Part shown: positions 23,807-56,730 of the stretch, one piece after another
Layout: each line of letters opens with the position of its first letter
Position numbering within the stretch: position 1 is the first letter of the stretch
Source: Botryosphaeria dothidea
Taxonomy: Eukaryota; Ascomycota; Dothideomycetes; Botryosphaeriales; Botryosphaeriaceae
Direction of reading: 5' to 3'
Assembly: GCA_011503125.2 (NCBI GenBank)
Contig: WWBZ02000001.1
Location: 3,410,001 to 3,474,000, forward strand
Length of the DNA: 64,000 nucleotides
The notes under the pieces: generated by a model
Database searches by the model: none
The model's input: the letters and a program-made list of their open reading frames with translations, nothing else
What the model was told of the DNA's origin: nothing
Position numbers and translations under genes: made by a program

Positions 23807-24939
23807 TCAGATACCCGAAGAACCCTTCAAGGGGGCGTACACATTTGTGGTCCCCCAAATCCTGATGCCTTCCTTCTCCTTCTCATCGACCCAAGGCGTC
23901 TCAACGGTCTCTAGATGCGCAAGGTGCCTCTTCAGCGCCTCCAAGCTCTGTTCAGTAACGAAGAACTCCGTATCGCCTTCGTATCTGAACTTCTCCAACT
24001 CCGCCAGGTCCAGCCAGTGCGTCCTCTTGCAGTCGACATAGCAACCCTTGGGCAGCTTCTTGTCGCCCTCAGTAAACATGACCGGTAAGCCGTCGTGGTT
24101 CTCGGTGATGCCGTTGTAGAAGAGCAGGAACCACTCGCGGTACTTGGTCGGATTGCGCGCGTGAGCCCACTTCTCTTCGCACGTCTTGTCGCCCCAGGTC
24201 GTGAGCGTGGTGACGAGCGCCTTGTGGCCGTTGACATTGATGACTACGCCGGGGTGTCCGCGCCAAGACTTCTCGCCGTCGGGATTCTTGACGAAGAGCA
24301 CGCGGCGGAGGGTGAGTTCGTGTGCGTGGAGCTTCTTGCTGACAAGCTGCATGTAGCGCTTGCGAGCAGACAGATGCGCGGGGATCGGAAGCTGCGGCGA
24401 AAGAGTTGGTGGGAGTGCGACGGGAATGGTGGTGCTGGACGGTGCGGTGGGAGTGGGTGTGGTTATCAGAGTTGTGGAATCTTGGGCGGGCGGCCCAGGA
24501 GCTTCCTCCTTAGGCGCATTGTTATTGAGCTCGGCCAGGGCGGCAAAGCTATTCGTCATTTCCGCGATCAGGGACGACGTATTGGAGTTTGTGTGGGAGT
24601 ACGAGCGGGACGAGGAACCCGGACCCGTCTGGCCGCTGTTCTGAGGGACGGAGGAATGCTCCCGGCGCCAACTCGAGGCCGTCCTCCATGGCTGGGAATT
24701 TGCGGGAGAGCTTCTATTCGCCAGAGGACGTTGATTGCGGGCGCCGCTTCCGGAGCGCGTCCAGGTCTCGGTGCCTGGGCCACCGTTGGAGGAAGAAGAG
24801 GAAGGATAATTGCCTGCCAAATGGTTTAGGACGTTTTAGCTGAAGAAGCTGCTAGTCAAGCTTGGAGAAGGCTCTTCCGTGGCATACCTTGAGTATCGCT
24901 GTTGCGGCGCCAGAGCGGGACGTTGGCACTGGAAGACAT
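23807..24939 (-). CDS. array gene A1: disordered N-terminus plus HPxVI domain
   Basis: Predicted exons 24888-24939 (52 nt, MSSSANVPLWRRNSDTQ) and 23807-24813; donor GTATGC, acceptor GGCAG; 352 residues. Residues 1-150 are Ser/Asn/Gly/Pro-rich. The conserved domain begins near residue 185 (LTLRRVLFVKNPDGEKSW), then RGHPGVVINVNGHKALVTTL, TTWGDKTCEEKWAHARNP, and a C-terminal CYVDCKRTHWLDLAELEKF helix region. It ends about 20 residues after a WVDEKEKEGIRIW element. I do not recognise an established family; the strand order resembles PemK/MazF-like barrels. First gene (right-to-left transcription) of the minus-strand array, intact. Confidence 0.82.
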
Positions 24940-26168
24940 CTCTGGGAGCCGGAAAGATGGGGGAGGAGGGAAAGAGATGGTGGAGTTGAGAAAGGAATGT
25001 ATGAGGGAATCGATGGCGTAGCGGAGTGGTGCGCCGAAGCCGCGAGGTAAGGATAGCTCGCCGAACCCCAGTCCAAGTCACGGGAGCGCGTCGGGATCGC
25101 GTGGAGGATCTGGAACCGTCCAGGACACAAGCTCTTTGAGCCTGCCGAAGACATCCCGGGAGTGAACCCTTTACCGCCTGCACATTTATCATCCCATCTC
25201 AGTGAATGGGCTCCAAGGTGCCGATCGGTAAGTCACTCCGCGGTGGCACTGTGCTGACAGCTCAAACAGGTCAAATCACTCTGCGACATCAGGAAACCTC
25301 GCAATGTTGTCACACCAATCTTCGATGTGCCATTAAACCTGCGCTGCGGTTGATAGGGAATTGAACAAGCAGGCTATCGATCTGTTCGATTCCCAATGCT
25401 CTCTCCCCCATTCGGCAGCGCCTCAATCCCGTTCGCTACGACATATGTACAACTGAGTGCGTGAATTATACTACCTGAACAAGATGGGTTTACTCCAATT
25501 CGCGAAAGTATATAATCATCAAGAGTTTGAGGCATTGTTTGCGAGATAATTGCGGGCTCGGGTTCAGACGTGTTGCGACCGGAAGCTCAGGTACACACAA
25601 AGCCGAAGACTAAATTCAGATATAAGCATTCTGAACCACAACTACGCTGCCCTTGTAGTAGTTCGGCTTTATGTGTTTTTTGAGTTTTGAGCTTGCAAAC
25701 GATGCAGTCGCGCTGTCACGGTGCGAATTGGCGTTCGCGCCATGCCAAATGTGGAAGTGCGCTAATAATTGGCACTAACCGAAACTGGCAAATATACTTC
25801 CCTCAGATTCGACCACGGATCTCTCACGACTAGAGTTTTGCGAAGACATCAATACCTATACTACGCATGATAAAGAATCGAACCCTATCATTACATACCT
25901 TATACGCTCCGCAAACTTACTTTACCCATACAGCAATTTGCAGATGCATCGTAGAAGAATAAAATACCAAACTGAACACCAGTCGAAATCGATGCCTTTT
26001 CATTTGTAAATCCCTGGAACTTCTTTGGCCTGATTAATGAAAACAAAATGAAGAATTTCTGATACTGCTGGCCTGGGACAAGGTGTGCAAATGCCCCAAA
26101 GCCACCGCCCCAATCGCTGCTGCCATGACCATTCCCCCTGTCGAGTGAAAGGATCTCTACAATGTGTC
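24940..26168. other. spacer between A1 and A2
   Basis: About 1.2 kb. No gene recognised; presumably the A1 promoter and the A2 3' region. Confidence 0.45.
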
Positions 26169-26402
26169 TCAGAAGAAGTCAGCACGGAATCTAGATAGTT
26201 TCTCAGAGCCAGGGAATGTGTTGGTGCCTTTGCTAGCACCCCCCTGGAAGGGCCATTCCTCATTGGGGAGAACGCCGGTTCGCTTGGCCTCCACGTACCG
26301 GATGATCGTGGCGAGATCAACCCCGTTCCACGGGTACTCCCCAGAATCCAAAATCTCGCTGATGGTGCGGCCTCTAATCATCTTCTCGAAGAACTCCTCT
26401 GG
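26169..26402 (-). other. in-frame continuation of A2 beyond the TGA
   Basis: The same reading frame goes on past the TGA for 77 codons. It includes PEEFFEKMIRGRTISEIL, GEYPWNGVDLATIIRYVEAK and RTGVLPNE. The A3 protein ends with the homologous GDYPWNPRDLATIFRYLEAK and KTGLLPDEG, so this segment is ancestral coding sequence. It would be expressed only by readthrough, or it is a relic if A2 is a pseudogene. Confidence 0.75.
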
Positions 26403-27730
26403 TCATTCGAGGTCCTCCTCGTTCAAGAAGGCCTCCTTGTCCGTGGCCTCCTCCTCCACGTAGCGCTCGATCTCGCTCACGTGGACGAACCTGACGGCAC
26501 GGCAGTCGAGGAAGGTGCGGTACGAGAAGATCCTACCAGGACCATATCGCACCATGCCCACGTCATCGTGGTCCAGCTTTCCACGGTGCGCAACGAGCGG
26601 GAAGAAGCTGCGCTGGAGCTGCGGGTCTTTGGCGTGAGCGAGCTTCTTGTCGCGCCCCTGCTTGCCCCAGGTCGTTGTCATGATGAGACCGACCACGCTG
26701 CCCCATGCCCCCATGATGACGCCTGGATGGTTGCGCCAGCCCTCAGCTGCATCAGCCTTGCTGTCACGCTCGGCTCTTTTGATTTGGATAAACCGGCGGG
26801 TTGTATACTCGTTTGCCCGCAACGTTTTGCTGAAAGGTCGGCACCCAGATACTGGCTGGTTATTTCGGGATATTGAAGACGATGGATTGGCAGACAGCAC
26901 GTTGAATATGATCGGCGTTGTACTAAGCAGGTGTCGAGCGGATTGTTGCTGGGAGCTACTCCTGGTGTGCAACTCGCCCTCAGAGCTGGAGCTGGACTTC
27001 TGAGGAGTTTGAACTCCAGTCTCTGAATGCCCCGCGTCAGTGTTGCTCCTGATTCCTGCAGAAGAGCCGGAAGGAAACGAGTTGTTGTCCATCAGGGTGT
27101 CAATGTTGATGGTGAGGGCTCCTACAGGCACCACGTTGTTGCGTTGCTTGTTGCTAGCCAGTTTTCGATCTTTTCTGGTGCACTTTGACGACTTGACTGA
27201 TGCGCCGTACATCTGCTGCAAGTCCAGTGGCGTGGACTTCTTCAGCTGGACCTCGCCCTTCCCTTCCTGGCTCAAAGACTCTAGTGAACTACACGAGGAT
27301 TGTCCATTACCCTTATTGTCGCCGCCGTGATCCTGGATTTGCTCGTCACTGTCCGGAGTATTGACAGGGCAAGCCTTCGTAGGTGCACACGAGATTCCCG
27401 CCGAGGCGGAACCACCAGTTGTAAGAGTGCTTGAACCCCTTAGCGTGGTGCCGCTCAAGCGGTGTTCCGAAAATGTAGTAGATTTGAGCTTCTCATTGGC
27501 ATTACCCTTGTTCCTGAAAGTCCAGTAGAAAGCTGAGGCCTTATCGTCGGAAGTGAAGGAATCGGCTCTTCGCTCTCGAGAGGCTTGTGTTGCTTGACTT
27601 TTTCTGGAGATTGCGGAATCGCGGCCTTTGGATTGCTGCACCTGTCCAGTTGGAGAAGGCCATTATTCTTCTTCCTTCTTCTCGTGGTGTTGGTGGGCCT
27701 CTCGACGTAGGTGAACTTTCCCTTGACCAT
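26403..27730 (-). CDS. array gene A2: HPxVI-domain protein interrupted by an in-frame TGA
   Basis: The start at 27730 (MVKGKFTYVERP...RRRKKNNG) is chosen because A3 begins with a matching MGRVKFPYKSVP...KKKRRRNG. The reading frame changes near 27600-27640; a GTGCAG donor with a CTCCAG acceptor would fix it but the intron would be only 38 nt, so this junction is unresolved. The main frame carries TRRFIQIKRAER, EGWRNHPGVIMGAWG, TTTWGKQGRDKKLAHAKDP, RSFFPL and FLDCRAVRFVHVSEIERYVEE. The frame stops at TGA 26405-26403 in the middle of the conserved C-terminal helix region, and coding character continues downstream. Closest relative is A3. Confidence 0.7.
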
Positions 27731-28523: not shown

Positions 28524-29701
28524 TCAGCCTTCGTCAGGAAGTAACCCAGTCTTCTTTGCCTCCAGATAGCGGAAGATGGTGGCCAAGTCACGCGGGTTCC
28601 ATGGATAGTCTCCTGAAGCTTTGATATCTGCGAAGGTGCGGTCCCTAGTCAGATTACCCCGAAAATCCTCGACTTTATTCAGCGAGGCCTCAGTGAGGAA
28701 AGCTTCCTTGTCCGTTGTGTCCTTTTCCACATAACTCTCCAGCTGCGACTTGCGGACAAAGCGGCATGCACGAATATCGAGCCAAGACTTTGCCTGGAAT
28801 ATGTTCTTCGAGCCCTCGAAATTCAGCATGCCGTACTTGTCGTAGTCGAGCTTGTTGACGTATTTTAGGAGGGGAAAAAAAAGCTCAACCTCAGCTCCCG
28901 CTCTTGGATGCCGTCGACCTGTCCAAACTTGTCGTTCCGGCCTCCGCAGCTGTTCCAGGTCGAGGAAGCACAGACAGCAACCAGATCGCCCCACGTCCCG
29001 AGTATAACGCCCGGGTGTCCGCGCCAGCCTTCGTGTGTCTTGGTTGGCGACTGTTGAGATCTGGACGATGCGACGCCGGGTATACTCGTCGTCTCGGAGT
29101 CTCTTGTTGGACTTGAACGCGTCGAGCTTTGGTCGGCTCTGCCTGCGCCACTCGGGTATATTTGACTGTACCTTCACCGCGGTACTGTGCTGCGAGCCGA
29201 TAGGCAGCGAGCCATTGATGTCCTCCAGTTGGCCTTCTGCACCCGTATGGTTATGAAGAAGAGAACCAGCGGGATGAGAAAGTGCCGAAGACAGCTGTGG
29301 CATTGCGGAAGGGCCGAGACTTCTGGTGGATAAAGCGGGCTCTGAATTGCTACTGACATTCGAGAGATCAGTTGGTAAATTTTCAAGGGCTCCAGCCGGA
29401 GAAGAAAAGGCGGAACTCTGATCGTCATTCTTGATCAGGATCTCGAGGTGCTTTTTGGCAGCGAGATTGGGTTGAGTGCTGAATAGCGACGGAAATGAAG
29501 GCGGTGGATGCGAGCGTCCGGCCTCAGATGCTTGGAAGCGTTTGGTGGACTTGGCCGCACACGAGCCTCAGGGTTCTGTGGATCGTCCGAATGGTCGGAG
29601 GTACTAGTCTCAGCGGGATCTGCTTTTCCATTTCTGCGTCTCTTCTTCTTAGAAGATGTGCTTTCTGGCACCGACTTGTAGGGAAACTTGACTCTCCCCA
29701 T
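28524..29701 (-). pseudogene. array gene A3: HPxVI-domain gene with frameshifts
   Basis: Starts MGRVKFPYKSVPES...KKKRRRNG like A2. The HPxVI element is not in the main frame: EGWRGHPGVILGTWGDLVAV is encoded in another frame between an (AC)3 run at 29033-29038 and an A8/T8 run at 28875-28882. Two indels at these simple repeats (about +1, then a compensating change) explain it. The long ORF therefore stays open but reads about 50 wrong residues. Downstream the frame is normal: KSWLDIRACRFVRKSQLESYVEKDTTDKEAFLTE and the YPWNPRDLATIFRYLEAK end. A further frame change lies between exon 1 and the main frame near 29.5 kb. Either a decaying gene or sequence errors at the repeats. Confidence 0.7.
28875..28882 (-). 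repeat. T8 run (minus strand) at a frameshift in A3
   Basis: Homopolymer in the coding strand of A3 where the reading frame returns to that of the conserved C-terminal half. A tract of 6 or 9 T would restore continuity with the HPxVI segment. Confidence 0.8.
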
Positions 29702-31702: not shown

Positions 31703-32689
31703 TCAAGGCTGCTCCTTCTCTGCCACGAGCCGGGCGAACTCCTGAAGACACCTCTGGTCCTCCGGATTCCAAGGCGAATCCTCGACGTAGGCCAGCTCGC
31801 ACGCCTTCTTCCTGACGAACGCAAGGTCCTCGGGGCTCAGGCGAGCCTGCTCCTGCGTGCCGTTGCGGAAGTACCTGCGCAGGTGCCTCTTGCGGACCCG
31901 GCGCGCGCCGCGCAGGTCGAGGAACGTCTCCTTCTCGAAGATGCACGCGCCCTCGAGGTGCACGACGGGCGAGCGGTCCCCGTTGTCCCGCAGCCCTTGC
32001 GCGTCGGTCGACTCGCCGATCAGGCAGAACGAGCGGTGGTACAGCGGCTGGTCGTGCGCCTGGTCGAACTTGCGGCCGCGCCCCAGGTCGCCCCAGCCAG
32101 TCGCCGTGAAGACGAAGACGGCGTCGCGGTTGATATCGAGCGCGACGACGGCCGGGTGGTTGCGCCAGCCCTCGTTCTGGCACGCGGGCACGGCGGGGTC
32201 GGCGTTGACGTAGACGAAGAGGCCCGCGACGCAGTCCTCGCGGCGGAGCAGCTTGAGCTGCGGGTCGAACTTGGACGGCGAGCGGCTGAGGCGCAGAGAG
32301 CGCAGGAGGTCGGACAGCGGCCGCGAGCTGATGGTTGGCATGGCTTGGAACTGGCCCATTGGCTGCTGTGACATTGGTAGAACGGGCCGGTTCTCCTTGT
32401 CTGCGGTGCATGACGCTGTGCGCCCGCGAGATGGTGCACGCCGGCGCCATTCTGGTGTTCTGGTGGCTGGAGCAGACTGAGAGCGGTCCGTCTGATGCAA
32501 AGCTTCGGACCGAGGATGTTCTCTCCCAGCTTCACCGTCGTTATCCGAGGGACCATCGCTAGGCGCTGTATTGCTGTTATCGAGCGCCGAAGCAGTTGTC
32601 TTGCTCCGCGGCCGATCGACAGTTAGAACCGAGTTCTTGTCTCCATTCTGGGGCGAAGAAGGTCCAGGGCCTCTCTGTTCTTGCATCAT
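31703..32689 (-). CDS. array gene A4: HPxVV-domain protein
   Basis: Single open frame of 328 residues starting MMQEQRGPGPSSPQ. The first 150 residues are Ser/Asn/Arg/Gln-rich. The domain starts at about residue 150: LRREDCVAGLFVYVNADP, EGWRNHPAVVALDINRDAVF, TATGWGDLGRGRKFDQAHD, YHRSFCLIG, then HLEGACIFEKETFLDLRGAR and RVRKRHLRRYF. It ends with a WNPEDQRCLQEFARLV helix. This is one of the best preserved group-A members. The GLFVYV strand before HPAVV corresponds to the G-hydrophobic-V strand of PemK-like barrels. A TATAAA lies at 33117-33122 about 430 bp upstream. Confidence 0.85.
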   Translation of the reverse strand: MMQEQRGPGPSSPQNGDKNSVLTVDRPRSKTTASALDNSNTAPSDGPSDNDGEAGREHPRSEALHQTDRSQSAPATRTPEWRRRAPSRGRTASCTADKENRPVLPMSQQPMGQFQAMPTISSRPLSDLLRSLRLSRSPSKFDPQLKLLRREDCVAGLFVYVNADPAVPACQNEGWRNHPAVVALDINRDAVFVFTATGWGDLGRGRKFDQAHDQPLYHRSFCLIGESTDAQGLRDNGDRSPVVHLEGACIFEKETFLDLRGARRVRKRHLRRYFRNGTQEQARLSPEDLAFVRKKACELAYVEDSPWNPEDQRCLQEFARLVAEKEQP

Positions 32690-33598
32690 GTGCTACTTGT
32701 AGGATGTATGCAAGAAGGAAGCTAGGTATCATATGTCAGCGGTCTGTGTCTGGATTTGTGTCTGATCGGAAGAGTATCCAGGCAGAGACCTACCAGGGAT
32801 GCGATATTGACAGGAGGCAAGGACGCAACCGACTGGTCGAGAAAGGACTCGATGGGAGGATTTTGGGCGCGGCTGTTGGCAACATCAGTGAATTCCACGC
32901 ATAAGGACGGCTGAGGGTGTCATGGGCGTGGCTTACAGTGTACGATGAGGGCAGCTATCGTTGTGTAGATACAAGATTGGTAGCCACAGCCGACGAAAGA
33001 CGTGCCGATGATGGTACAGTAGCGTCAAGAAAGGAGAATTGGGGGCGAGTGCGTGAAGTAGAGTGGCGGTGGGTGGGAATGTTTAGAGTGTCGTTGTCGC
33101 TGCTTGAATGGAAGGCTTTATACGCGCAAGCTCGGAGAGGCTGGGAAATTAGTGAAATGCGCGTCCGGGGTCTCAATAGACCGCGCTGGTGAGCAGATTG
33201 AGCCGCGCGTACGAATTCACATCCACCATGAAGAGGAATGAACCTCGAAGCCCATGGAATGGTCCGGTGCGGAACCAGCAACGGACAGCGGCGAACCCAG
33301 GAGGCTCTTGAGACTGATAACTTTTATATGATATGATGTAGTTGTTTATATGAATATCCAAAGAGCAAATAAACTATCTTCTTATCAATTGGCACACAAG
33401 AGATCGGCTTGGAAAGTTCGTGCAACCAGGGGATTCTTTCCAGACAATGCTGTTATCATTTAATTCATGCAGTACGGTTGAGGTGCTCTTGTATCTTAAA
33501 TGCCAACCTCTATCCTACAGTCCTCTCAAGTGTAATTGATAATGAAGAATAAGATTAAACAAACGGAATTGATCAATGACCCGAATCCCTCAAAAGAA
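32690..33598. other. spacer between A4 and A5
   Basis: 0.9 kb, no gene; contains the likely A4 promoter (TATAAA, minus strand, 33117-33122). Confidence 0.45.
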
Positions 33599-35798: not shown

Positions 35799-37073
35799 TC
35801 ACTTCTCCCTCCTCATCGGTCCCTGGAACTGGCTCAACACGCCGTCAAACTTCTCGGGGCTGACACGACCACTCGTACTGCTTTGTCGAGACATCCCTGC
35901 CGTAGGAGCGGGCAGAGGCGGCACCATCATCGGCGTGCTGGAACGGTCGTTATCCTCCTCCTCGTCGCAGTCGTCCGGACGGTAGCCCTGCTGCACCATG
36001 CGCTCCCTCCACTCCCTCAACAACGCAAAGTCGGCCGCCTTCCACGGCGACTCGGGCAAGCCGCCCAGCCGAAACAGCTGCGCCGTCAGCTTCCTGCTCT
36101 CCGCCTCGCCGATCCACACCTGCTCCCTCGGCCGGCCGGGCAGCCGCTTGCGGAAGTACTTGGAGCACTCGGCGGCGAACCGGTCGACGGGGATGCGCCG
36201 CACGCTGCGGCAGTCCAGCCGCGTCTGGTCGAAGAACGCCATCGCGCCGCGCAGCCGCACGACGCGGTTCTCGCCCTCGCCCGGCGCGAGCGCGTCGTGC
36301 TCGCCGACGAGGCGGAAGAACCAGCGGTGGTAGAGCGCCGGGTCGTGCGCGGTCTGGAACTTGGTCGCGATGCCGTCGCCGCCCCACGACGTCGTGCCGA
36401 GCAGGTGCACGTTGCCGTCCCAGCGCCCGAGGATGAGGCCGGGGTGCCCGCGCCAGCCTTCGTTGGGGTCGTCGTCGCTGGTGGTGGTGGTGGTGGTGGT
36501 GGTGAGGGCGCGCTGCTGCTCGGGCAGCGGCTCGATCCAGACGAACTTGCTGGCTTCGATGTCGGTGGCGCGCGGGATCTTCCAGCGTGGGCGTTCGCGC
36601 TGGGCGGGAGACGGAGGGGGTGGTGGGGTGGAGGCGGCGGCGGGTCGGGCGGGGAGGAGGTGAGAGGGAGGGGCGAGGTATGGTGAGGTCGAAGATGCCG
36701 CCGGCGAGGGCGCAGGAAGCCAGGCCGGACGCACTGGGAGGAGCGGCGGCGGCGCGTCGGCGTGCGACGTGCTGGACGATGCGGTGGCCTCTTCCTGGCT
36801 GCTGGAGCCGCTCTGCTGCTGCGCGAAGCCCGTAAGGTCGTTAGGAGTATCATGAACGGTGGAGGTGCGCTGGAACTTGCTCTTCTTCGGCTCCTTCTGG
36901 CGGCCGCCGGCCACTGCCGCCCACGAGCGCTTCGGCCGCGCCTCCTCCAGAGGCGCAGAGCCGGGCGCCGTGGGTGCAGAGACAGCGGCCGGAAGGGCGG
37001 GGAAGGCCGAGTCGTCGGCCGCGTTGAAGTCGGATGGGCGCAGGCCCTTCTTGGGGTTGTGAGGAGGCGCCAT
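35799..37073 (-). CDS. array gene A6: HPxLI-domain protein with FPALP motif
   Basis: Single exon, 424 residues (MAPPHNPKKGLRPSDFNAADD). Near the N-terminus is DDSAFPALP, one of three FPxL motifs in the array. The linker is Pro/Ser/Ala-rich and GC-rich, with a run of eight Thr just before the domain. The domain reads EASKFVWIEPLPEQ, NEGWRGHPGLILGRWDGNVH, TTSWGGDGIATKFQTAHDP, YHRWFFRLVG, FFDQTRLDCRSVRRIPVDRF and SPWKAADFALLREWRERMV. Unlike other A members it carries a 55-residue acidic/Ser-rich tail after the domain. It is intact and the last A-type gene. Confidence 0.85.
   Translation of the reverse strand: MAPPHNPKKGLRPSDFNAADDSAFPALPAAVSAPTAPGSAPLEEARPKRSWAAVAGGRQKEPKKSKFQRTSTVHDTPNDLTGFAQQQSGSSSQEEATASSSTSHADAPPPLLPVRPAWLPAPSPAASSTSPYLAPPSHLLPARPAAASTPPPPPSPAQRERPRWKIPRATDIEASKFVWIEPLPEQQRALTTTTTTTTSDDDPNEGWRGHPGLILGRWDGNVHLLGTTSWGGDGIATKFQTAHDPALYHRWFFRLVGEHDALAPGEGENRVVRLRGAMAFFDQTRLDCRSVRRIPVDRFAAECSKYFRKRLPGRPREQVWIGEAESRKLTAQLFRLGGLPESPWKAADFALLREWRERMVQQGYRPDDCDEEEDNDRSSTPMMVPPLPAPTAGMSRQSSTSGRVSPEKFDGVLSQFQGPMRREK
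36481..36503 (+). repeat. GGT/ACC trinucleotide repeat in A6
   Basis: About eight GGT units on the plus strand encode the Thr8 run of A6 (minus-strand ACC), directly N-terminal to its conserved domain. Confidence 0.85.
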
Positions 37074-39301
37074 GGTTGTGTGTCTGGCGGGAGAGGGAAG
37101 ACAAGCGGAGCTCGAATAGAGAGAGATGAGGCAGAGAATGGAGTTGACTGGACATGGGTGTGCTAGCTATCTTGGTGCCGGGCGATTGGGGAAGTGCGAA
37201 ATTCACCTCTCGCGGGTGAATGGTTGTGGTGTTCACTCTCCCCAAGCACCGGCTGCTCGCATCGCCCAAATTCACTTTGCGATTGGAGCTCACCGTGGGT
37301 TTCAAATGAATGATAGAACACCGTAGACACCCTGGAGTTCTCCCATGACCTTTGTGACAATTCAGAGTAGGAATATCTAAATGATTCATGATTCTGGGGC
37401 AAGACATGCGCTGCTGCTCGGCGATGCGATGCGATGCGACCTCCAGGAACTCCGCGACACAACAAAGAACGATTATTCCAGAATGGAGGAAAAAGAGCAA
37501 GCGCATTGTGTTAATGGTACAAGCGCCTCGCGCACCATTTCAGCGCGCAGAGTTCCGGTGTTACTGCCTTTCTCGCCCTAAGCGTCAGTTCTCAATGGGA
37601 CCTCTTGTAGGCCTAAGGTGTCGTTTTTGCCTTATTATCCGTATCCCGCAATGCGCCATATCTGCTGCCTGTGCTCTGATGTTTTGCATATCACCGCTTT
37701 TGAATACGGCGGCGCTGCGGCATCGCGGAAAGCCGTAGGAGCCAACGGTGATGCTTTTCGCGCTCCACACAACCGCCACGTCGGCCTCGACTTCATCTGA
37801 TGACGTCACGGAGAAGCAACCACCGCACGCAACTTGTACGTCCAATCAGTACGCCAGGTGGCATGACGCTCCCGGAGGTAGGAATAAGTGTACAGAGGGC
37901 TTTGCTGCCTGACTCGTCATTACTGCGGGCGACACCGGTTAAGTGATGTGGTTACACTAGGGATCAATCTTGTAAGCAGTAAATTCGATAAATCTGGTAT
38001 TAGTGCCTTCTCAACGTCAATCTCTTGTCAAGATACATTCAGGTGTTGGAAATGTGTTGAGACTGAGTCTGGCGTACAATTGGAATTGCAGACGAAGAAA
38101 GTAGACTGATCATTTGCATGTCCGTTGGACTGAGATCTTGAATCTACACGTAGCTGTGCTGGTCTGCTTTTATACATGTCAAAGTACGTCTCAGAACATG
38201 TGCAAGGAGCACATGGACCCATTGTCACACTCCGCGGTCTGTCAAGCCATTTGCGGGATTGTATCAAGCTTATTGCTACACCAAACGCCATCCAGCTGAC
38301 CATTGTCCATTACTTACAAGCAGCTCGTCTTAGTTTCGCCTATCAACGCCCCTGGAGCCCCCCTCCCTCCGCCCTCCAACAGCATAGCCTGCCGCTCTCT
38401 GCGCCGCTCCGACACATCCGTGAACGGATAGGAGAACGGGAAGATATTCGCATCCACCAGTCAGACCATACACCGCAGCAGATTCTCGAGGTTGAAGCAA
38501 ATAAGGCGGAGCGGTGCGGGGGTAGGCTGGGTCGTGCGCCACGGTGGGAATGGTGCGCCATGGCGGAAAGCGGTTGTGGCGCTGCGGCGGAAGATCTGGT
38601 GGCAAATCACTGGCTTCTGAATCTGCTGCAGGGGGTCTTCTTACTGCGATCTTGAAGCGAAGACATTGCGTACAGCTTGCTGGTTGTGGATGAAGTGGTG
38701 TTGGGAAGCTGTTGTCGTCGTTGCTGGAGAGAAAAAGAGCAAAGGATTGGAAGAGGTATCGCCGCATCGAATATCGCTACCAGATACTTCAGTCCAGCTA
38801 GCACTGGTTCAGAACTAGGTATCATCGTTTGAGCAGGATTCGATATCATTTCCACGAAAGAGGAAGAGGCCGCTGGCCTCACTCTTAAATGTTTATCAAA
38901 CAAGCCCGCATTGGTCACAGCGTGATGTTGTTTCGAGTCATAAGATATTTTGGAATGAGCATCATAGATGACAGGATTACATGCATCCTCAGATACCACA
39001 TCAATATGCATAAATGTCTAATTGCCTAACGGATTCAATGGCTGCAGCGTGTTGGCTGCTCGAAGCCTCATCACTGCCCCTCCATGTCCAACCTCGGCAC
39101 CCAACCGTTCCCTCGTATATCATGGAACTAGTATCTATCTCATCCCTCTTTATGTCCGGCACCCTCAATCCTTCCTTGCTGTTTCCGTTGGTGTAATCGT
39201 TTGACCGTTCAAGTTGATGTTGTTCAGTGTTCATCCCCTCCGCATTTTGTGAACTACGGCTTATCCACGCTACAGCCAGCGTGATCCATTCACCGCATCT
39301 C
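37074..39301. other. spacer between A6 and B1, with a possible gene relic
   Basis: 2.2 kb separating the two subfamily blocks. On the minus strand near 38655 there is MSSLQDR followed by a GTAAGA donor, which resembles the short first exons of array genes, but no HPxV domain follows. No supported gene. Confidence 0.4.
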
Positions 39302-42428: not shown

Positions 42429-44118
42429 CTACCAGCTGAATTCCGGGCAGAAGTCGTCCTCATCCTCATCGTCATCCGCAGCTCCGTCGGTCTGAAACAT
42501 CTCCCTCTTCCGCTCCATCTCCCTCCGATGCTTCTCGTCCTCCTTCAGGTACCACTCCGAGTACCTCTCCAGAAGATCCATCTGGTCGGCCGGGAAGAAG
42601 ATCTCCGGGAACTTCATCGCACGTGAATACTTCGAGAAGTAGTCGATGTGCAACTCAGTGTTCCCGTGGATGTCGAGATAGGACCCCATCTCGGACATCC
42701 GCTCGCCGTCCGCCAAGCGAAGCATCGGAGTGTCATCGTGCGGTTTCGTGATGCCGTCGTCAACAAGCAGCCACTGCTTCTCGTGCCAGCGCTTCTGGTT
42801 CTTGTTGACGTACATGCCGTACTTGTTGTAGAAGCCGCCGATCTTCTTGAAGGACGACTGCTTGAAGAAGGTGATCTTCCTCCGGGCCTTGTCGACAGAG
42901 CGCACCACGGCCGGGTGGTCGCTGTAGTCGATCCCCTCGAGCTTGTCGATGAAGATGACCTTGCCGCGGTAGCAGTCGTCGATGTCCAGGCAGAAGGCCT
43001 GGTTGCGGCGGCGGCGCGGAGACGGCAGCGCGCGCTCTTCCGGCGAGTCGGGCGCGGGCAGGCTGACGCTGTAGTCCGTGAAGCGCACGAACTTGCGGCG
43101 TCCACCGCGCGCGGAGGGCTGGTCGTCCAGGCTCGCCGCGCCGAACTGCTGGGACAGCTGGGAGGCGGCGTCCTGGCGACGGCGAGACGGAAGCTCGCTG
43201 CTGCGCTGGCCGGACGGCTGGCTGCCCAGGGAGGGGAAGTCGTCCTCCCTGAACGGGGCTAGAGCGGACGGACCGGACGGGCCGCGAGGAGCACCCTGGG
43301 CAGCCACAGCAGGGGAAGGGCGCGTCGGGGGTTGGCGAGTGCCCTGCTGCTGGGAGTGGCGCGGAGGAGGATGCTGACGTCCAGGCTGTCCACGAGCGGG
43401 TGTGTGCGCCCTGCGCTGTCCAGCTGAGTAGCCAGACGAGCTTCCGGAGGGCTGCATGGGCTGAGCTTGGTACCCGTGGCTATATGGCTGGTCGTAGGGT
43501 GAGGACTGGCGCGGAGGAGGTGCAAGGCCGCCGAGCTGAGGAGCCTGACCGTAAGGAGCCATCTGGGGGGCACTAGTGTTCTGGTAGCCGTAGCCACCAG
43601 GGTAGGTGCCCGCACCAGCTTGGTCGCCACCGTGGCTGGGGTACATCTGGGGCTGGCCGACAGTGGGGTAGGCCTGTCCCATACCAAACTGGTTGCCGCC
43701 ATACCCTTGTTGCTGCTGAGGGTACTGGCCGTAGCCCGTGGTGTTGTACCCCAAACCTTGGCCAGCGCCGTAGGGAACTCCAGGCTGATTCATCCCGGCC
43801 TGCTGGAATGGGCTCGGAGTGCGCTGGTCGAAGGCAAGTTGAGTGTTGCCCTGGATTCCAACGTAGGCCGGGTTGAAGAGGCCGGGAGTGTTGCCCGGAG
43901 CATGGTATGAACCGGAAGGGGCCATGTTGGAAGGGTGGTTCTGTTGACCACCTTGCTGGTTGCGCCTCTTTTTATTTAAAGGATCAGCTCTGTGCTGTAC
44001 TATAGTTGGGATTGGGATGTGAGATCAAGATGTGAGGCACTTACGGGTTATTTAAATGCTCTGCGGACCTGCGGTTGTTGCGGCTGTTGCGGTTGTTGCG
44101 GCCACGCGAGTTGGGCAT
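42429..44118 (-). CDS. array gene B3: prion-like N-terminus plus HPAVV domain
   Basis: Exons 44045-44118 (74 nt, MPNSRGRNNRNSRNNRRSAE) and 42429-43965; donor GTAAGT; 536 residues. Residues 25-260 are Gln/Gly/Tyr/Pro/Asn-rich with little charge, typical of prion-like phase-separating regions. The first exon is Arg/Asn-rich. A FREDDFPSLGSQ motif lies near residue 265. The domain begins at CLDIDDCYRGKVIFIDKLEG, then DYSDHPAVVRSVDKARRKIT, FFKQSSFKKIGGFYNKYG, KQWLLVDDGITKPHDDTPML and GSYLDIHGNTELHIDYFSKY. It ends in a charged helix (KEDEKHRREMERKREMF) and an acidic tail. Intact and a strong member. Confidence 0.87.
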
Positions 44119-46601: not shown

Positions 46602-47306
46602 GATGTGAATAGTGCGAAAGATTAGAGGTCTTGCTTTGAATGCCGTACGACGCTCAGCGTGAAGACAGTCGGGAATGCAGATGCAGTGGGAGGGGTGTTG
46701 TCGGCAGCTTGATGTGCATCCACGTCACATAGCGTGGCGCTACAAGCCAAAGTCTGCCGCGACCTGGAAATTCTCGAGTCGGTGATTGAATTTAGCGTCG
46801 TTATCAAAAGCTAAAGAGCGCGCGGGCAGAAGTCTGTGCCTGCTCCCACCTGCAGCACTGTGACCCCTCAGAGCCTCAGTCACTCGAGGAGGATTCATTA
46901 CATGGACTACAAATATAGGAGCCAAATTTACGAGTTTTGAGACATCTACAATTTCGGTTTGAGCAAGGAAATTTGGTATTGGAATAGTCTCGATGTTGTT
47001 GACGGCTTGAGCAAACTGCCATCTCTAGTTATGTTCGCTCGTTTTTTAAAAAGGAGTCTTTCCTTTAGAGTGAGAAATCCGAGCTCTCCGATCAATACTC
47101 ATGTCTCAAAGTACTCGCACCGCTTTGTCCTTCGGCTGTCAAGTTGTCGTTCAAGCAAGTACCGTCAGACGAATATCGAAAATGTTAATGTTGTGATCGT
47201 GTGCACACAATGTAACATTGTCGAACTACTTTCCTTAGGCGCTGACTTTATATTCCAAAGCACGTATCTCAAGCGTCTTGTTTTCTGATCATACGCATCT
47301 ACCATC
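46602..47306. other. divergent spacer between B4 and the RING-like gene
   Basis: 705 bp between opposing starts; both promoters should be here. No specific element recognised. Confidence 0.45.
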
Positions 47307-47735
47307 ATGGCGGACCGTACGACGTTTCTCACCTTTCCCAAGGTGATTCTTGGGCCGGCCAACGTCTGCGATTTCTGCAAAAACACCCTTGCCTGCTACA
47401 AAAATCCTTCTGATCCTACATTCAGACTTCCCTGCGGATGCATTATCGACCTCTCATGCATTACCTCTGCGTTCAAGATGCAGCACTCCATTGCGGTCTT
47501 CTTCACTTGCCCGTCGTGCTTGGTTGACCTCGAAGGCCCTCGCACTCAGACCCTGTATCCTCCAGACGGTGACCTGTTCCGCGTAGAGTCCATTGGCGAG
47601 AACATGCAGGTTTCCACCTTCCACGATGAAGACACTGAGAGGATTACTGGACACCTCGTGTACAGGCAGCATTATGATTCCAATGCCAGTACGCTTACTG
47701 TTATGATCAATCTGGTGCCGGAGAACGACATTTGA
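47307..47735 (+). CDS. small RING-like zinc-binding protein
   Basis: Single exon of 142 residues, the only plus-strand gene inside the array. The ATG is in a good context (ACCATCATGG). Residues 21-71 show CDFCKNTL, LPCGCIIDLSCI and CPSCL, a cysteine pattern C-x2-C-x18-C-x-C-x5-C-x16-C-x2-C. It matches the outline of a RING finger, but the usual His after the CG is Cys and the usual His/Cys before the last pair is Asp (IIDLSC). The remaining 70 residues (DGDLFRVESIGENMQVSTFH, YDSNASTLTVMINLVPENDI) look like beta strands without known family. RING proteins are typically ubiquitin ligases; whether this variant is active is unknown. It is unrelated in sequence to the array genes. Confidence 0.75.
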   Translation: MADRTTFLTFPKVILGPANVCDFCKNTLACYKNPSDPTFRLPCGCIIDLSCITSAFKMQHSIAVFFTCPSCLVDLEGPRTQTLYPPDGDLFRVESIGENMQVSTFHDEDTERITGHLVYRQHYDSNASTLTVMINLVPENDI

Positions 47736-48181: not shown

Positions 48182-50046
48182 CTACTTTGCTTTCTGAGCG
48201 TCAGACAAAGCCCGAACCTTTGCCTTGAAGCTTTCCCGACATGCTTTGCAGCGATCAGGGTCAGCAGCTTTCTCCTTCTCCAGTCGACTCTGCTCTTCCT
48301 CCCTCTTCTCCTTCTTGATCTCGATCTCGGCTTCCAGCTCCCGGGCGAACATCCGATACGACTCGAAAAAGGCCATGTCTTCGATGACATACCTGTTCTT
48401 GAGGCCCGTCTTGTCGTTGTACCTGAGTAGGTCATCAATCGAACACTGGAACTCAAGGTAAAAGTTGACGTAGGAAGACTTGTTCTCCGGTAGCTTGCCC
48501 CCTTTGAACTTGAGCACGGGAGTGTCCAGGTGCGGGCCGACCGCGCTCTCGCTGTCTGCGAGCAGGTACAGGCGCATGCGGTCCTCCCTCTCCTAGTCCT
48601 CCTAGGCGGTGTTGCTCTTCTTCTCCATGCTGCGTCCCTGGAAGGTGGTTGCGGACGTGCACCAGATGGTGCGCGTGTTGATCCATCCCCGGACGATCGC
48701 TGGGTGGTCGCCCCACCACTCGCCGTTCGGAGGGACGTAGACCAGCAGGCCAACTTCCAGGTCCTTGCGCGTCAGGTGGTATTCCTGCCGGAAGGAGGCG
48801 CTGCTTCGCGGCCACTTTGGCGCTGGTCTGGACCTGGATGGAGATGTCTGGCCGGGGGAACCGGGCGGAGGCAAAGACTTGGCTGTCGTCGGAGAGCCGC
48901 CGGCCAGAGAGAGGCTGCCCGCTTTCTGCCGGGCAGTCGAAGTTGCGGTCACTGTGGAAGGGCTCCCATTGCTCATGGAGAGGCGGGCAGTCGTGGCTTG
49001 GCGACTTGGTGTCGGCGGCGGCGAATCGGTTTCGGCGGCGCGCTGTTCCCTCGATGGAGTCTGGCTGTCGGAGCCAGTTGTTGTCTCAGGCCTGCAAGTC
49101 TGCAGCGGCATGGTTGGCAGTGTATACGTGGCGGAAGTGGGTGCTGGGCTCCTTTTGGGAGTGCTGGGCATAGCGCTTCTGCCCGGTGACTTCTGACCAG
49201 CGGAACCCGGCTGCGGACCAGGCTCGTGGCAGCGCAAAGCGAGCAGCGGCCTTCGGCGAAGCGGTCTTTTCCGGTTTCTGGTTGGCACTGCGCATTGCTG
49301 CAGGCTCGGTTGGTGTGCCGGCGGGAGGAGATCGACCGGGAGAGGGTTCAAGGCTCGGAGGCGCGCGGATTGGGAGGGCCCGGTTCGTACGAGGTGTTGT
49401 GGGCTTCTCGAAGACACCGTATGAGCAGGGTTGACAGCCACTCGGATTGCAAGCATAGTAGCCGTATTGTGTGAAGTACTCCTGCATTGTTGGCACCCCT
49501 GGACCCTGGAATGTCCGGTTGGTGTAGTATGGGACAGGAGCTACGCTATCAACGCCGAGATGGTACGTATGGAAACCAGGACCGAGACCGATGGATGGAT
49601 ACAGAGGATTGTTCACATCCAGTATGTCAGAGGTATCATACTCGTGCTGAAGCTGGCCACCGATAGAATGCCGCGGTCCCGAGTGCATGTTCGGTGTCGG
49701 CAGCATTGCGGCGGAAGCGCCTTGTTCATCGTGGTGGTAGGTCGACTTGCGGCGCGGTCCCTTGGGAGGGTTGAAACTCTTCGGCTCCATGATGCTCTCG
49801 TGGTGACCTTCTTGACAATCCCGTAAGCAATGCCCGAAGAAGGGAGACTCTGCAATCTTGCCGATTTCGAGGAAGTAGCAGAAGACAGAAGGCGATGGAT
49901 GAGCAGAGCATCCAAATGAGTTAAGCTCAGTAGGCACTTGCAAGCAGTGGTGGGTCGGGATCGGAAGCAGCGATGTCGACGGTGGAGTCGGGCTTGTGTT
50001 TGGAGGAGTCGACAGGGCGAGCGTCGGCGGCGAGTGAAGCAGCCAT
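48182..50046 (-). pseudogene. array gene B5: HPAIV-domain gene with a frameshift and two in-frame TAGs
   Basis: N-terminal coding sequence runs from a possible first exon at 50046 (MAASLAADARPVDSSKH) or the internal MEPKSFNPPKGPRRKSTYHH near 49789. The frame changes near 49210-49240 without a plausible intron. The domain then reads LTRKDLEVGLLVYVPPNGEW, WGDHPAIVRGWINTRTIWCT and ATTFQGRSMEKKSNTA. It meets TAG at 48604-48602 and again at 48595-48593 (two codons between), then continues in the same frame as EREDRMRLYLLADSESAVGP, HLDTPVLKFKGGKLPENKSS and YVNFYLEFQCSIDDLLRYND. The tail is a charged helix (IKKEKREEEQSRLEKEK). The two stops fall in a variable loop before the YLL strand. Three lesions favour a pseudogene; sequence error or recoding is not excluded. 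Confidence 0.72.
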
Positions 50047-51265: not shown

Positions 51266-52760
51266 TTAGGCATGGACGATGCTCTTGCTGCGATCATCCA
51301 GGACGAACTTTCGGTTGAGGTCCACACCATCAGCATACTTGCGGAGTTGAGAAGCCTTCAATTTCCGTCGGTACTGGAACCACACGTATGTAGGCTTCTT
51401 CATCCGATGACCGTCCTTGAAATGGAGCAGCGGCAGGCCCAGATGCGGCGTGGGACCATCCTCCCGATCCTCGATCAGCAGGTAGTCACGCAGATGTATG
51501 TCCAGCTGGCGGTCCAACCGGATGTTCGCGAACTTGACGTAGATATCGTGGCTGCTGGAGAATCCAGTGCAGGGGAGCAGGTAGATGTCGTCCTCGCTTT
51601 CCCAGTCGAATATCAGACCGGGATGGCTGCCTGTCCATTCGCCTGTCGGGATCATGTGTGCGATCTGGCCGTCCTCGATCTCGTCGAGGTTGAACTTGAA
51701 TTTATCCCAGGACTTCTTTCGCTTAGTGTCGATCCAGGGTTGTGGCGGACTTTGCATCGACTGAGTCTTGGATGTTTTCGAGCGATGGGGAGCTTGAGGA
51801 CGAGATGGCTTCTGCTTCGGACGCCGTATGTCGTGTGCGTGTCTCCTAGATGCGGCAGGAGATTGCGGCTGCGGCTGCGGCTTGGCAGACGCCGATTGTT
51901 GTCTCGACTCTGAAAATCCCGAAGTGCCTTGGCAAGACCCATACTTGTTGTGTCCAGCTGAGTACTTGACGTCTGCCGATGGGTAGCTGTGAGACATCCT
52001 TCTCTGCGCGCTGAAAGAGGCCGTGGATGACACCTTCGGGACAACAGCGCATCCGTCATATGGACCTCGCGACGACTGATGGATACCCTGTTGGAAAGGC
52101 GTCTGATTCCTTATCGTCTGGGGCGCTATATACGCATTATCAGAGGAGAGGCTGTGCTGAACCGATGGCTGTATGTGCTGAACAGGTGCAAACCCGTGAC
52201 TTGGGATTCTCCTTTGAAAGTTGTACTGGTTCAGCATGTTTCCCGCCGGGTGTGTCTGGTATGGGTGCTGTATTGGAATACAGTACCTAGGAATCATCGC
52301 GGAGGGATATGGAGTGGTGGATTGCCACGACGGTGTTGAAGCCGATGTAATAATCCGCGTAAAAATTCCGCCGCTGCATGGCCCCCTCGATAGGGGGTTG
52401 TTCTTGTGAAGGCCGCAGGGCATCCATCCAGCTGCAGCAGAGAATGCATGAGGCACAGGAGCTGGCTGCATTTGCGGCGGCATCACTGGTCCATTTCCAC
52501 GCCAGCCATTGACACCGCTGGTTTGACCGTTGCAGAACGTGTTCTGCACGTGGTGCGCTTGTGCGTGAGGTGGCGGGTTGAATGGCACAGCGGCGTTGAG
52601 CGGGGGGATTGTGCGCTGCTCGTGGAACCCCGGCTGGCTAAGCGCAGGATTGCTTGGACCCGTCGTGTAGAAGCTACCGTGCGTCTGCCCCATGTTGTCT
52701 GAAAACATTGTCAGTGTCATGAATGCCCAGATCTTGAGTCTCCTTACGGTTGCGGGCCAT
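51266..52760 (-). CDS. array gene B6: HPGLI-domain protein ending early at TAA
   Basis: Exons 52748-52760 (13 nt, MARN) and 51266-52698; donor GTAAGG, acceptor TTTCAG with ACTGAC branch-like site; 481 residues to the TAA. The N-terminal 330 residues are Gln/Pro/Ser/His-rich. The domain has LDEIEDGQIAHMIPTGEWTG, SHPGLIFDWESEDDIYLLPC, GFSSSHDIYVKFANIRLDRQ, DYLLIEDREDGPTPHLGLPL, FKDGHRMKKPTYVWFQYRRK and LRKYADGVDLNRKFVLDDRS. The frame stops at TAA 51268-51266 before the final helix, and a coding-like extension follows in the same frame. Confidence 0.8.
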
Positions 52761-53547: not shown

Positions 53548-54480
53548 TCACGCCCCGTAGTAGCGATGGGCAGACGACGACAGGTTCGTCTGCGGATGCT
53601 GTGCACCCTGCTCCGACAGCATCGCCTGCTGCCGTGCCTCTTCCGCCCTCCTCTTCTTCTCCGCCTGCATCGTGGTGTACCAACGGAAGTACGCCTCTGC
53701 GGCATCCATGCTCGCAGCAGTAATGTGGTAGTTTCCGGACTTCTTCCCGTGCGACCAGCGCGCCAAACCCTCCTTCTTCACCGTAGCGCTCCCCGCGACC
53801 ATACTGACGTAGGTCGTCTTTGACAACTTCTCTCCATTCTCCAGCTGCAGAACTGGCAATCCGTAGTGAGGCTCAGTCTCGCCGTCGTCAATCAAAAGGT
53901 AGTCATGGCAGTGTTCGCGGTGCTTTGCCGGCTTGCGAATGCCTTCGAACTTGCGTCAGATGGTGCCGCCACTCTCCGAGAAACTGGTGCCGGTGAAGAC
54001 GGAGATGTTGCCCTCACCGTCGATGTCGCGGATGATTGCGGGGTGGCCGCCGTGCCACGTGCCGTTTCGTTTGAGGTACGTGAGGAGGCCGCGGCGCAGG
54101 TCGGCGGAGCGGAGCTGCCACATCTCCCAGGAACGGGGCTTTCCTGGCTTCACCCAGGCTGAGGGAGGCGGTCGGCTGGTGGAAGCGATGTTTATTGTTC
54201 TTTGCACACCTTGCTGAGACAATGGAAGAGAAGCTTTATGTTCGCCCGCGGCGCCATTGTTCTCCGAGCTACTGACCGGGTCAGACAAAGGTTGGAATTG
54301 TAACGCGGAAACAATCGGCCGGCCTGGTACGAACTCGGGCGCGTCTGCCCGCAGGCTGCTGGAGTGCCGCACAGGCATCGGATGGTGAGCAGAAGGTCGG
54401 TGAGAACTTTCAGGCATGGTATCCAGACGGGGAGGCGGCTGAGGACTTGCGGGAGGGAAAGCTGCCTCAACTTGGCCAGA
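53548..54480 (-). pseudogene. array gene B7: PAM2-like motif plus HPAII domain, in-frame TGA
   Basis: Coding frame from about 54480 (SGQVEAAFPPASPQPPPR) through MPESSHRPSAHHPMP at 54417. A possible short first exon is MTRRKTFTP at 54707-54733 followed by a GTAAGC donor, but the joining phase does not fit simply. Near the N-terminus is SSLRADAPEFVPGRP, very like the PAM2 consensus (L-N-x-x-A-x-E-F-x-P) that binds the MLLE domain of poly(A)-binding protein. Domain: SADLRRGLLTYLKRNGTWHG, GHPAIIRDIDGEGNISVFTG, TSFSESGGTI, then TGA at 53958-53956, then in frame RKFEGIRKPAKHREHCHDYL, LIDDGETEPHYGLPVLQLEN, SKTTYVSMVAG and the helix SMDAAEAYFRWYTTMQAEKK. Everything except the TGA looks intact. Confidence 0.75.
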
Positions 54481-55122
54481 TTGAGATTATAGATAGTAGC
54501 TCGTTCGCTGTCGGTGAGGATGCGCCTGCTGGTGACACTCCTGTAGAGGTATCGATGATTCTGTACGAAAGCGACCATTCACGTGTAAAGGTTCTCCAGA
54601 GCCTGTCTCACTAGAAAGGTCTTGAAAAGAATTTGAAAGTGAAGGGTCTGTTTTGGGAGACTTTGAACCATGTATGAAATCAAAAGGACCGGCGGATTAC
54701 GCTTACAGGCGTAAACGTCTTCCTACGAGTCATGATGTTTGGCTCCATCCTGCTCTTGAGCGTTGAACAAGCACTGTCATGTGTAGCAGACAGATAGTTG
54801 ATATTAATGGTTTTGAGGAACCGTTTGTAGTAGACTGAGTTCGTCAATGAGGAGTACGAAACTTGAGACTTTAAGTAAGAATGCTCAATCCCAACTAGTG
54901 TTTGCTCAAACAGAGCCACTATCAATGATCATATCACGGGAGACCGCAACAACCGTGGATACACTTGTCCAAAGTCTTTTGGGAGTAAATAAATCTTCAA
55001 ACTATCAATCACAAGAAGTTTTCCATTTCCATCCATACAACGCAGGTATTGCCTATTGTTATGCGCCGTTGAAGCATTCATCTTTGTTTGTTCCCCTTTG
55101 TACCCCCTCAAACAATCCAGAA
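54481..55122. other. spacer between B7 and B8
   Basis: 642 bp; includes the possible B7 first exon at 54707-54733 (minus strand, followed by GTAAGC). Nothing else. Confidence 0.4.
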
Positions 55123-56730
55123 TCACATGTGGTTTCCTCCCCGCACCTGCCGCTGCAGTGCCTCCGCTCGGTCACGCCGTCTCTGCTCCTCCGCTTGCTT
55201 AATGACCGTCGGCCAGATGTAGCTGCGGTAGCTCCTCAGCGTATCCATGCTCCCCGGCGTCAGGCACCGATACTGGAACTTCCTGCCGCCCGTGAACTCC
55301 ATGAGCTCATCAAGCCTGACTGTCTGGATGGCGCCAAAATTGACCCACGAAGCCTTCAGCATCTGCATCCCGTCCTTGAGCTGCAGCTTCGGCAGTCCGT
55401 AGTGGTTGGCCACGCCCTCGTGCTGGATGAGCAGGTACACGCTGGCGAGGTACTTGCGGTGGCTCAGGTTGCGGATGTTCCCGAACCGCTTCGCCAGCGT
55501 GCCCCTCTGCCCGAAACTCGTGGTCAGCGCGATGTCGACTTCCGCGAGGCTGCGAGCGTCCACGATCACGGCCGGGTGGTTGCGCTGCGGGTCGCGCCTG
55601 GTCGGCTTGGCGTGGACGATCAGGCCAGGCTCGAGGTCCTCGAACTTGAGGCGCCAGGGGTTGGCCTCGTACCAGCTTGCGCGAGCGGCGGTGTCCGGGC
55701 CGGTGTCGGGCGGGCCACCTTCAACATTGGTCTCGCTGGGCTCGGCATGAACGACGGTGGTGGACGTAGTGGCAGTGGAAGCGCGAGCCGTAGCTGCCGC
55801 TTGCTGCGGGAGGTTCACGGCTTGCTGACTCTCCTGATCACCATGCATTATACTATGTTGATTGCCAGCCGTCATCACCTGGTTCCCGTAAACAAGATGG
55901 TAGGATTGCTGGTTGAATTCCGTACCACTGAAAACGGCTGGGTGATGTTGGGAAGGCAAGGATTGGTTCATGCCGAAAGTGCCAGGTCCTTGCATGGCAC
56001 CATGTTGATTCTGATGACTAGCATCCAGAGGACCGCCGTTGTTGTCACCGTTCTGACCGAAGTAGCTGGAGTTGTGCTGATAGGAACCATTACTACTGTA
56101 AGGGTAGTATGCGTTCTGTTGGAAGGAGGTGCTGTGCCAGTGGCTGTAGTCCGGAGCGCTGCCAGTCCAAGAGGAGTAATCGTACGGCGCTGCAGGTGCG
56201 AATTGCTGGCCATCAACCCCCATTGCGTAGGACGTGGAACTCATCATATGGCTTTGATGGTACATCGCAGTGGTGCTCTCGCCGCCTCTGTTCGTGGCAG
56301 GAGGAGCAAATTTATATGGCGATGGCACCGTCGGTGCTCCTTGGTACGCAGTGGGCCAGGCTTGGCCGAAATGGCTCAGATCTGGGTGGAGATCGGGATT
56401 ATTGCTGAACTGCTGCGCCGAGCCAGCGGGAAGATCGAACTGATGGCTACCTCCATAGCCTCGGGCAAAGTAGTCAGCGCCGTGCGGCGTGGATGGGTAC
56501 TGTTGCCCCGACGCGGCCGTTGGAATCCACAGTCCATTTGGCGCGAAGCTTCCGGTCATCCCATGAGCCTCATTCAGACTTTCGCTTCCGCGGCCGTTCT
56601 CATGTTCCGCGTGGTTGGTTTCGTTGCTCGAATCTGCCGCTGTTGGGTCAGCAAGTCCTAATCCCATCCAAGAAGTAGTAGACTTACACGTCATGTTTGG
56701 GTGCATACGTCTCCTGTTATGCGAGGACAT
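55123..56730 (-). CDS. array gene B8: HPAVI-domain protein
   Basis: Exons 56688-56730 (43 nt, MSSHNRRRMHPNMT) and 55123-56639; the 48-nt intron has GTAAGT, a GCTGACC branch-like site and CAACAG, and being a multiple of three leaves the frame open when unspliced. Spliced length 519 residues. The N-terminal 330 residues are Gln/Ser/Tyr/Asn/Gly-rich, prion-like in parts. The domain is the clearest of group B: KFEDLEPGLIVHAKPTRRDP, RNHPAVIVDARSLAEVDIAL, TTSFGQRGTLAKRFGNIRNL, SVYLLIQHEGVANHYGLPKL, LKDGMQMLKASWVNFGAIQT, VRLDELMEF, and a helix SMDTLRSYRSYIW with a basic/acidic tail. A TATAAA at 56788-56793 is 58 bp upstream of the ATG. Intact; the founding (rightmost) gene in position. Confidence 0.87.
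   Translation of the reverse strand: MSSHNRRRMHPNMTCKSTTSWMGLGLADPTAADSSNETNHAEHENGRGSESLNEAHGMTGSFAPNGLWIPTAASGQQYPSTPHGADYFARGYGGSHQFDLPAGSAQQFSNNPDLHPDLSHFGQAWPTAYQGAPTVPSPYKFAPPATNRGGESTTAMYHQSHMMSSTSYAMGVDGQQFAPAAPYDYSSWTGSAPDYSHWHSTSFQQNAYYPYSSNGSYQHNSSYFGQNGDNNGGPLDASHQNQHGAMQGPGTFGMNQSLPSQHHPAVFSGTEFNQQSYHLVYGNQVMTAGNQHSIMHGDQESQQAVNLPQQAAATARASTATTSTTVVHAEPSETNVEGGPPDTGPDTAARASWYEANPWRLKFEDLEPGLIVHAKPTRRDPQRNHPAVIVDARSLAEVDIALTTSFGQRGTLAKRFGNIRNLSHRKYLASVYLLIQHEGVANHYGLPKLQLKDGMQMLKASWVNFGAIQTVRLDELMEFTGGRKFQYRCLTPGSMDTLRSYRSYIWPTVIKQAEEQRRRDRAEALQRQVRGGNHM

What the first reader, a model, noticed from the sequence alone, without database searches (positions are those of the whole stretch)
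23807..56730. Fourteen-member, single-strand tandem array of an undescribed domain family
Fourteen genes over 33 kb, all on the minus strand, end in one homologous domain of about 130-160 residues: a G-hydrophobic-V strand, [H/R]P-x-[VIL]-[VIL], a T-x-[WSF] strand, a variable loop, a [YF][VL][DN] strand and one or two final helices. N-terminal regions are long, low-complexity and unalignable between members. Such a dense array suggests recent local amplification under diversifying selection, as seen for fungal allorecognition or effector families, but no family name fits.
Basis: partly seen in the sequence, partly recalled or inferred. Interest (0 to 1): 0.9.

Follow-up and report, generated by a model that had tools for sequence, protein, structure and literature searches.

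The report
Fungal cluster of MazF-fold RNase-like genes
A fungus carries a tight cluster of about fifteen related genes whose shared domain is predicted to have the shape, and nearly the active site, of MazF, a bacterial toxin that cuts messenger RNA, each attached to a long floppy tail; we found no earlier description of this in fungi.

Summary
The array is real. Leave-one-out profiles recognise 13 of the 14 genes above all 200 shuffles of each; g8 fails. The cluster runs past the window: two more copies lie within 6 kb, one on the plus strand, so it is neither fourteen-strong nor single-stranded. Three copies are broken. Members are 10-36% identical, and in the two members testable the domain is 96-98% identical to its nearest relative, like MLH3 13 kb away: old duplicates under constraint, not recent amplification under diversifying selection. 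No sequence library named the domain. Two AlphaFold2 models (pLDDT 87) both find the bacterial MazF/Kid/CcdB fold at the top. MazF's catalytic Arg and Thr fall on two of the most conserved columns: His in 14 of 15 copies (Arg in one), Thr or Ser in 14 of 15. Best reading: intracellular RNA-binding, probably RNA-cutting, domains restrained by disordered tails. The fold is well supported; catalysis and restraint are inferred. The host looks like Botryosphaeriaceae; g5 and g14 find no relative in Macrophomina or Diplodia proteins, where MLH3 does.

The parts
23807..24835 (-). g1, stop-to-stop frame; domain 23810-24343
   Evidence: 98.1 bits leave-one-out, 0 of 200 shuffles; frame
26403..27662 (-). 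g2; domain 26406-26834; frame ends at a TGA earlier than its relatives
   Evidence: 92.3 bits; matches run a few residues past the stop
28524..29567 (-). g3, broken: the domain lies in two frames, with two frame changes
   Evidence: pieces 38.9 and 30.0 bits; sequence
31703..32692 (-). g4; domain 31706-32266
   Evidence: 98.7 bits
33599..34774 (-). g5; domain 33602-34144; second structure model
   Evidence: 118.0 bits; model
35799..37166 (-). g6; domain from 36587 downwards, with a C-terminal extension
   Evidence: 67.2 bits
39302..40423 (-). g7; domain 39305-39724
   Evidence: 39.0 bits
41155..42009 (-). g8, possible member only
   Evidence: 3.8 bits, 2 of 200 shuffles as good; did not align
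42429..44024 (-). g9; domain 42432-43004
   Evidence: 89.3 bits
45206..46539 (-). g10; domain interrupted by two inferred introns, 45774-45840 and 45629-45692; Arg-Pro in place of His-Pro
   Evidence: 69.6 bits after splicing; single exons also match
48182..49540 (-). g11, broken: two in-frame TAG in the loop after the third strand; upstream start unclear
   Evidence: pieces 29.8 and 23.8 bits
51266..52792 (-). g12; domain 51269-51703
   Evidence: 49.2 bits
53548..54486 (-). g13, broken: one in-frame TGA in the same loop
   Evidence: pieces 26.9 and 52.3 bits
55123..56763 (-). g14; domain 55126-55662; first structure model
   Evidence: 79.9 bits; model

Best explanation
An old tandem gene cluster in a Botryosphaeriaceae-like fungus. 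Each protein is intracellular: a long disordered tail followed by a domain with the MazF/PemK/Kid/CcdB fold. The domain most likely binds RNA in the groove that MazF uses and, in the intact copies, cuts it with a His-Thr pair where MazF has Arg-Thr. No MazE-type gene lies near, so the tail (or an unknown partner) probably restrains the domain, as the disordered end of MazE restrains MazF. Copies would differ in RNA target and serve growth control or a response to infection or nonself. Shown by calculation: the family, its extent, the predicted fold, conservation at the two catalytic positions. Inferred: RNA binding and cutting, restraint by the tail, biological role. My odds: fold 0.93, acts on RNA 0.6, cuts RNA 0.45; the figure below is for the domain acting on RNA as described.
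Against: The catalytic Arg is replaced by His in 14 of 15 copies, and no activity is shown. PF02452 has no match in this genome, while it rings in 3 of 14 control genomes. Sequence evidence for MazF is weak: hhalign probabilities 4.4% and 2.7%, E 0.0092 and 0.017; for the first alignment 0 of 100 column-shuffled decoys score higher but the best has 21.2 against 21.7. Foldseek E-values are moderate: none at or below 0.001 for g14, two for g5. The two models come from overlapping alignments. CcdB shares the fold and is not an RNase. Three copies are broken. g10, the copy with Arg, has Phe at the Thr position.
Confidence: 0.55

Rival explanations
1. The MazF-fold barrel has lost catalysis and is now an RNA- or protein-binding module; with its low-complexity tail each protein is a regulator of the condensate type.
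For: His for Arg in 14 of 15 copies; tails rich in S/T/P/Q/N/G; CcdB shows the fold can serve protein binding (listed; its gyrase target is recalled).
Against: Both catalytic positions stay among the most conserved columns although the rest has drifted to 10-36% identity.
Confidence: 0.3
2. A selfish or nonself-recognition cluster (toxin-antidote, spore-killer or incompatibility type) built on a MazF-fold toxin domain.
For: Tandem cluster with old diverged members and three broken copies; g5 and g14 have no hit in sister genera that MLH3 finds; a retroelement lies next to it.
Against: Domain of g5 and g14 as slowly changing as MLH3; no NLR domain in nine proteins scanned; no antidote identified.
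Confidence: 0.12
3. Secreted effectors of a plant-associated fungus.
For: The closest named MLH3 relatives are plant-associated fungi (lifestyle recalled).
Against: No hydrophobic start in ten proteins: highest 12-residue mean hydropathy near the first Met is 1.46 (a crude test with uncertain start codons); tails of 72-356 residues.
Confidence: 0.04

Closest known systems
MazF/PemK/Kid mRNA interferases (Pfam PF02452)
   Same: Predicted fold; Pro and Thr of the active site kept; His at the catalytic Arg position, Arg in g10
   Different: No PF02452 match; His instead of Arg in 14 of 15; long disordered tails; no MazE gene near; tandem cluster in a fungus
CptN/ToxN type III toxins
   Different: No repeat-RNA antitoxin seen: five short tandem repeats in the window, no Rfam match
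CcdB gyrase poison
   Different: Not an RNase; its gyrase-contact residues were not compared

Membership tests
MazF/PemK/Kid (PF02452) | MazF-type barrel with C-terminal helix | tested here: met
   Predicted models and fold comparison; no solved structure
MazF/PemK/Kid (PF02452) | Match to the family profile | tested here: not met
   No match in ten domains, nine proteins or the genome at E up to 10
MazF/PemK/Kid (PF02452) | Catalytic Arg before Pro | tested here: not met
   His in 14 of 15 aligned copies, Arg in g10; register
MazF/PemK/Kid (PF02452) | Catalytic Thr | tested here: met
   Thr in 12, Ser in 2, Phe in 1 of 15
MazF/PemK/Kid (PF02452) | Adjacent antitoxin gene | tested here: not met
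   PF04014 only: two matches in the genome, on C39 and far off on C1, none near the cluster; other antitoxin families not tested
MazF/PemK/Kid (PF02452) | Small single-domain protein, about 110 aa | tested here: not met
   Frames of 284-546 aa with long tails
MazF/PemK/Kid (PF02452) | Sequence-specific RNA cleavage | not testable with these tools
   Needs a bench assay
MazF/PemK/Kid (PF02452) | Dimer with active site at the interface | not tested
   Only single chains were modelled
CptN/ToxN type III | Repeat-RNA antitoxin upstream | tested here: inconclusive
   Five short tandem repeats only; no Rfam match; diverged repeats could be missed
CcdB | Gyrase-contacting C-terminal residues | not tested
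   -
Fungal NLR/HET allorecognition proteins | NACHT/NB-ARC or HET domain | tested here: not met
   No credible Pfam match in nine array proteins
Secreted fungal effectors | Signal peptide | tested here: inconclusive
   Hydropathy of the start only, none in ten proteins; true start codons unknown

The most novel reading that the evidence does not exclude
A eukaryotic MazF-type system without a separate antitoxin: each RNase carries its own disordered inhibitor, uses a His-Thr active site, and the cluster spreads RNA targets for controlled growth arrest or antiviral and nonself response. The in-frame stops in g11 and g13, in the same loop of otherwise open domains, would then be switches (readthrough or RNA editing) rather than decay.
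Probability: 0.12. Interest if true: 0.88.

Novelty: new variant of a known kind. Interest (0 to 1): 0.63.

Why it matters
A survey of prokaryotic toxin-antitoxin systems says that most toxin families and superfamilies, Kid/CcdB/PemK/MazF among them, seem to have no role in the cell other than toxin function (PMC2701414, passage). A fungal cluster with that fold, conserved at the catalytic positions, would be a testable case of this toxin fold at work in a eukaryote, and asks how a cell holds a dozen such domains in check without MazE.

Tried and rejected
Recent amplification: rejected. Repeat-induced point mutation: TA/AT 0.51-0.74 and (CA+TG)/(AC+GT) 1.17-1.40 in sixteen 4-kb bins, no sign by the usual thresholds, which are recalled. 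Copies elsewhere: C1:6.06 Mb (E 0.378) lies in a low-complexity frame and is read as chance; C29 (E 0.445, from g8) is at chance level. tRNA-Thr at 39950-40038 has no Rfam support. Bacterial and viral relatives: patterns from four subfamily-A members matched 49 and 54 stretches, none confirmed; subfamily B was too diverse to scan; plasmids: none for g5, two rows at E 7 and 9 for g14. A scan for phage MazF relatives, for a deeper yardstick, confirmed none of 80. Weak point of the absence claim: only g5 and g14 were searched in the protein collection, which needs shared 5-residue words, and sister-genus genomes could not be searched as DNA.

Papers: listings 35, 58, 59, 60, 66, 88, 89, 93, 113 and 118 (open-access library only) showed no title on a fungal MazF-fold cluster; in the largest listings only the top rows were seen. 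PMC3482391, PMC9815663 and PMC13403568: term counts only, all zero. PMC12699882: one passage, in its references. PMC4234475: passages, PemK and MazF as reagents. PMC8634880, PMC7354611, PMC2701414: passages.

Full report
WHAT IS THERE. The window is C1:3410001-3474000 of a 51.7-Mb assembly in 78 contigs; C1 is 6.15 Mb long, so the array is far from its ends. Minus-strand frames from 23807 to 56763 end in a common domain. Profiles built from the other intact members, tested against 200 shuffles of each sequence, recognise 13 of 14 genes; g8 fails with 3.8 bits. For g3, g11 and g13 six pieces were scored apart and all passed. A profile of ten members (g8 and the broken copies left out) scanned over six frames of the window found only these genes. 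It also found two copies outside, not used in training: C1:3476107-3476646 (-) at E 5e-15 and C1:3478733-3479698 (+) at E 2e-22 (the second first seen). The rest of the 30 kb to the right and 10 kb to the left held nothing significant. So 15 supported copies and one possible one span about 46 kb on both strands. Ten single-protein searches of the genome, covering nine genes (g9 twice; g3, g6, g11 and g13 not used), found no credible copy elsewhere, but each query missed some array members, so a lone diverged copy could be missed.

SURROUNDINGS. Left: an MLH3-type mismatch-repair gene (7301-10582) and a BTB-domain frame (13478-14149). Right, beyond the window: a retroelement polyprotein with retroviral SH3-like and Pol beta-barrel domains (Copia-like, recalled) and an AFG1-type ATPase. 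Inside: a RING-like frame on the plus strand at 47289-47735, below Pfam cut-offs.

WHOSE GENOME. MLH3 finds 757 proteins at E up to 1e-5 (120 listed): nearest an unnamed one at 98%, then Macrophomina phaseolina 73%, Diplodia seriata 66%, D. corticola 64%, Aplosporella prunicola 54%, Phyllosticta capitalensis 47%. This places the host in or near Botryosphaeriaceae (inference). The same database returns one relative each for g5 and g14 at E up to 1, from unnamed assemblies. Against these, the g5 domain is 177/181 identical and its tail 187/205; the g14 domain 172/179 and tail 316/348; MLH3 490/500 and 562/575 against its own. Since the domain changes about as slowly as MLH3, copies of g5 and g14 in Macrophomina or Diplodia should have been detectable; they are absent, or not in the proteins held.

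HISTORY. Identity between ten intact members is 10-36%. A tree separates g1, g2, g4, g5, g6 from g7, g9, g10, g12, g14 with bootstrap 99 (other branches 34-91), matching the two halves of the array; distance along the DNA and in the tree correlate (r 0.37; 250 of 10,000 permutations as high). This is an old tandem expansion.

THE ACTIVE SITE. Profile comparison with E. coli K-12 MazF plus ChpB is weak (E 0.0092 and 0.017, probabilities 4.4% and 2.7%). For the first, 0 of 100 column-shuffled decoys score higher, but the best has 21.2 against 21.7. Its register is nevertheless the one a MazF fold would give: His-Pro on Arg29-Pro30 and the conserved Thr on Thr52. In 15 aligned copies (pieces for g3, g11, g13 and the minus-strand outside copy; g8, also given, did not align) the first position is His in 14 and Arg in g10; the second is Thr in 12, Ser in 2 and Phe in g10. 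Over the ten intact copies these columns rank third and joint fifth of 132. Bacillus MazF needs both residues, and Lys for Arg or Ser for Thr occur in natural MazF proteins (PMC7354611, passages); that Arg29/Thr52 of E. coli correspond to Arg25/Thr48 of Bacillus is recalled. His as an acid-base group is reasonable chemistry but inference.

HOW IT MAY WORK. The genome has no PF02452 match and no MazE-type gene near the cluster. Each of ten proteins examined has instead a tail of 72-356 residues, poor in order-promoting residues, which could occupy the RNA groove as the disordered end of MazE does (recalled). Nothing suggests secretion, on a crude test. Hence: intracellular RNA-acting domains under tail control, with copies differing in target. 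The broken copies argue that single members are dispensable. The frame of the outside copy at C1:3476107 also follows an in-frame TGA (sequence, read by eye); whether that gene starts later or is broken is open.

VERDICT. The fold gives the family a likeness, not membership in PF02452, since the profile, the catalytic Arg and the MazE neighbour were tested and not met.

Noticed in passing
48593-48604 and 53956-53958: In-frame stops (two TAG in g11, one TGA in g13) fall in the same loop of two different copies, with the frame open on both sides. Decay is likeliest; readthrough or RNA editing is not excluded.
   Followed up: partly
L037:2107-2646, C1:3476107-3476646: The outside minus-strand copy has its domain frame preceded by an in-frame TGA (read by eye).
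   Followed up: no
45629-45840: g10 is the one copy with introns inferred inside the domain, and the only one with Arg-Pro, together with Phe at the Thr position.
   Followed up: partly
C1:3481570-3485652 (L037/L038): A long retroelement polyprotein frame lies beside the cluster's right end.
   Followed up: partly
47289-47735: Small plus-strand RING-like frame inside the array, below Pfam cut-offs.
   Followed up: partly
13478-17116: Three neighbouring frames that look like diverged BTB proteins; one passes the Pfam cut-off.
   Followed up: partly
G000:C39, locus L023: The assembly's only MazE-type match over cut-off is on a small contig that looks bacterial to me, so the assembly may hold contaminant contigs.
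   Followed up: partly
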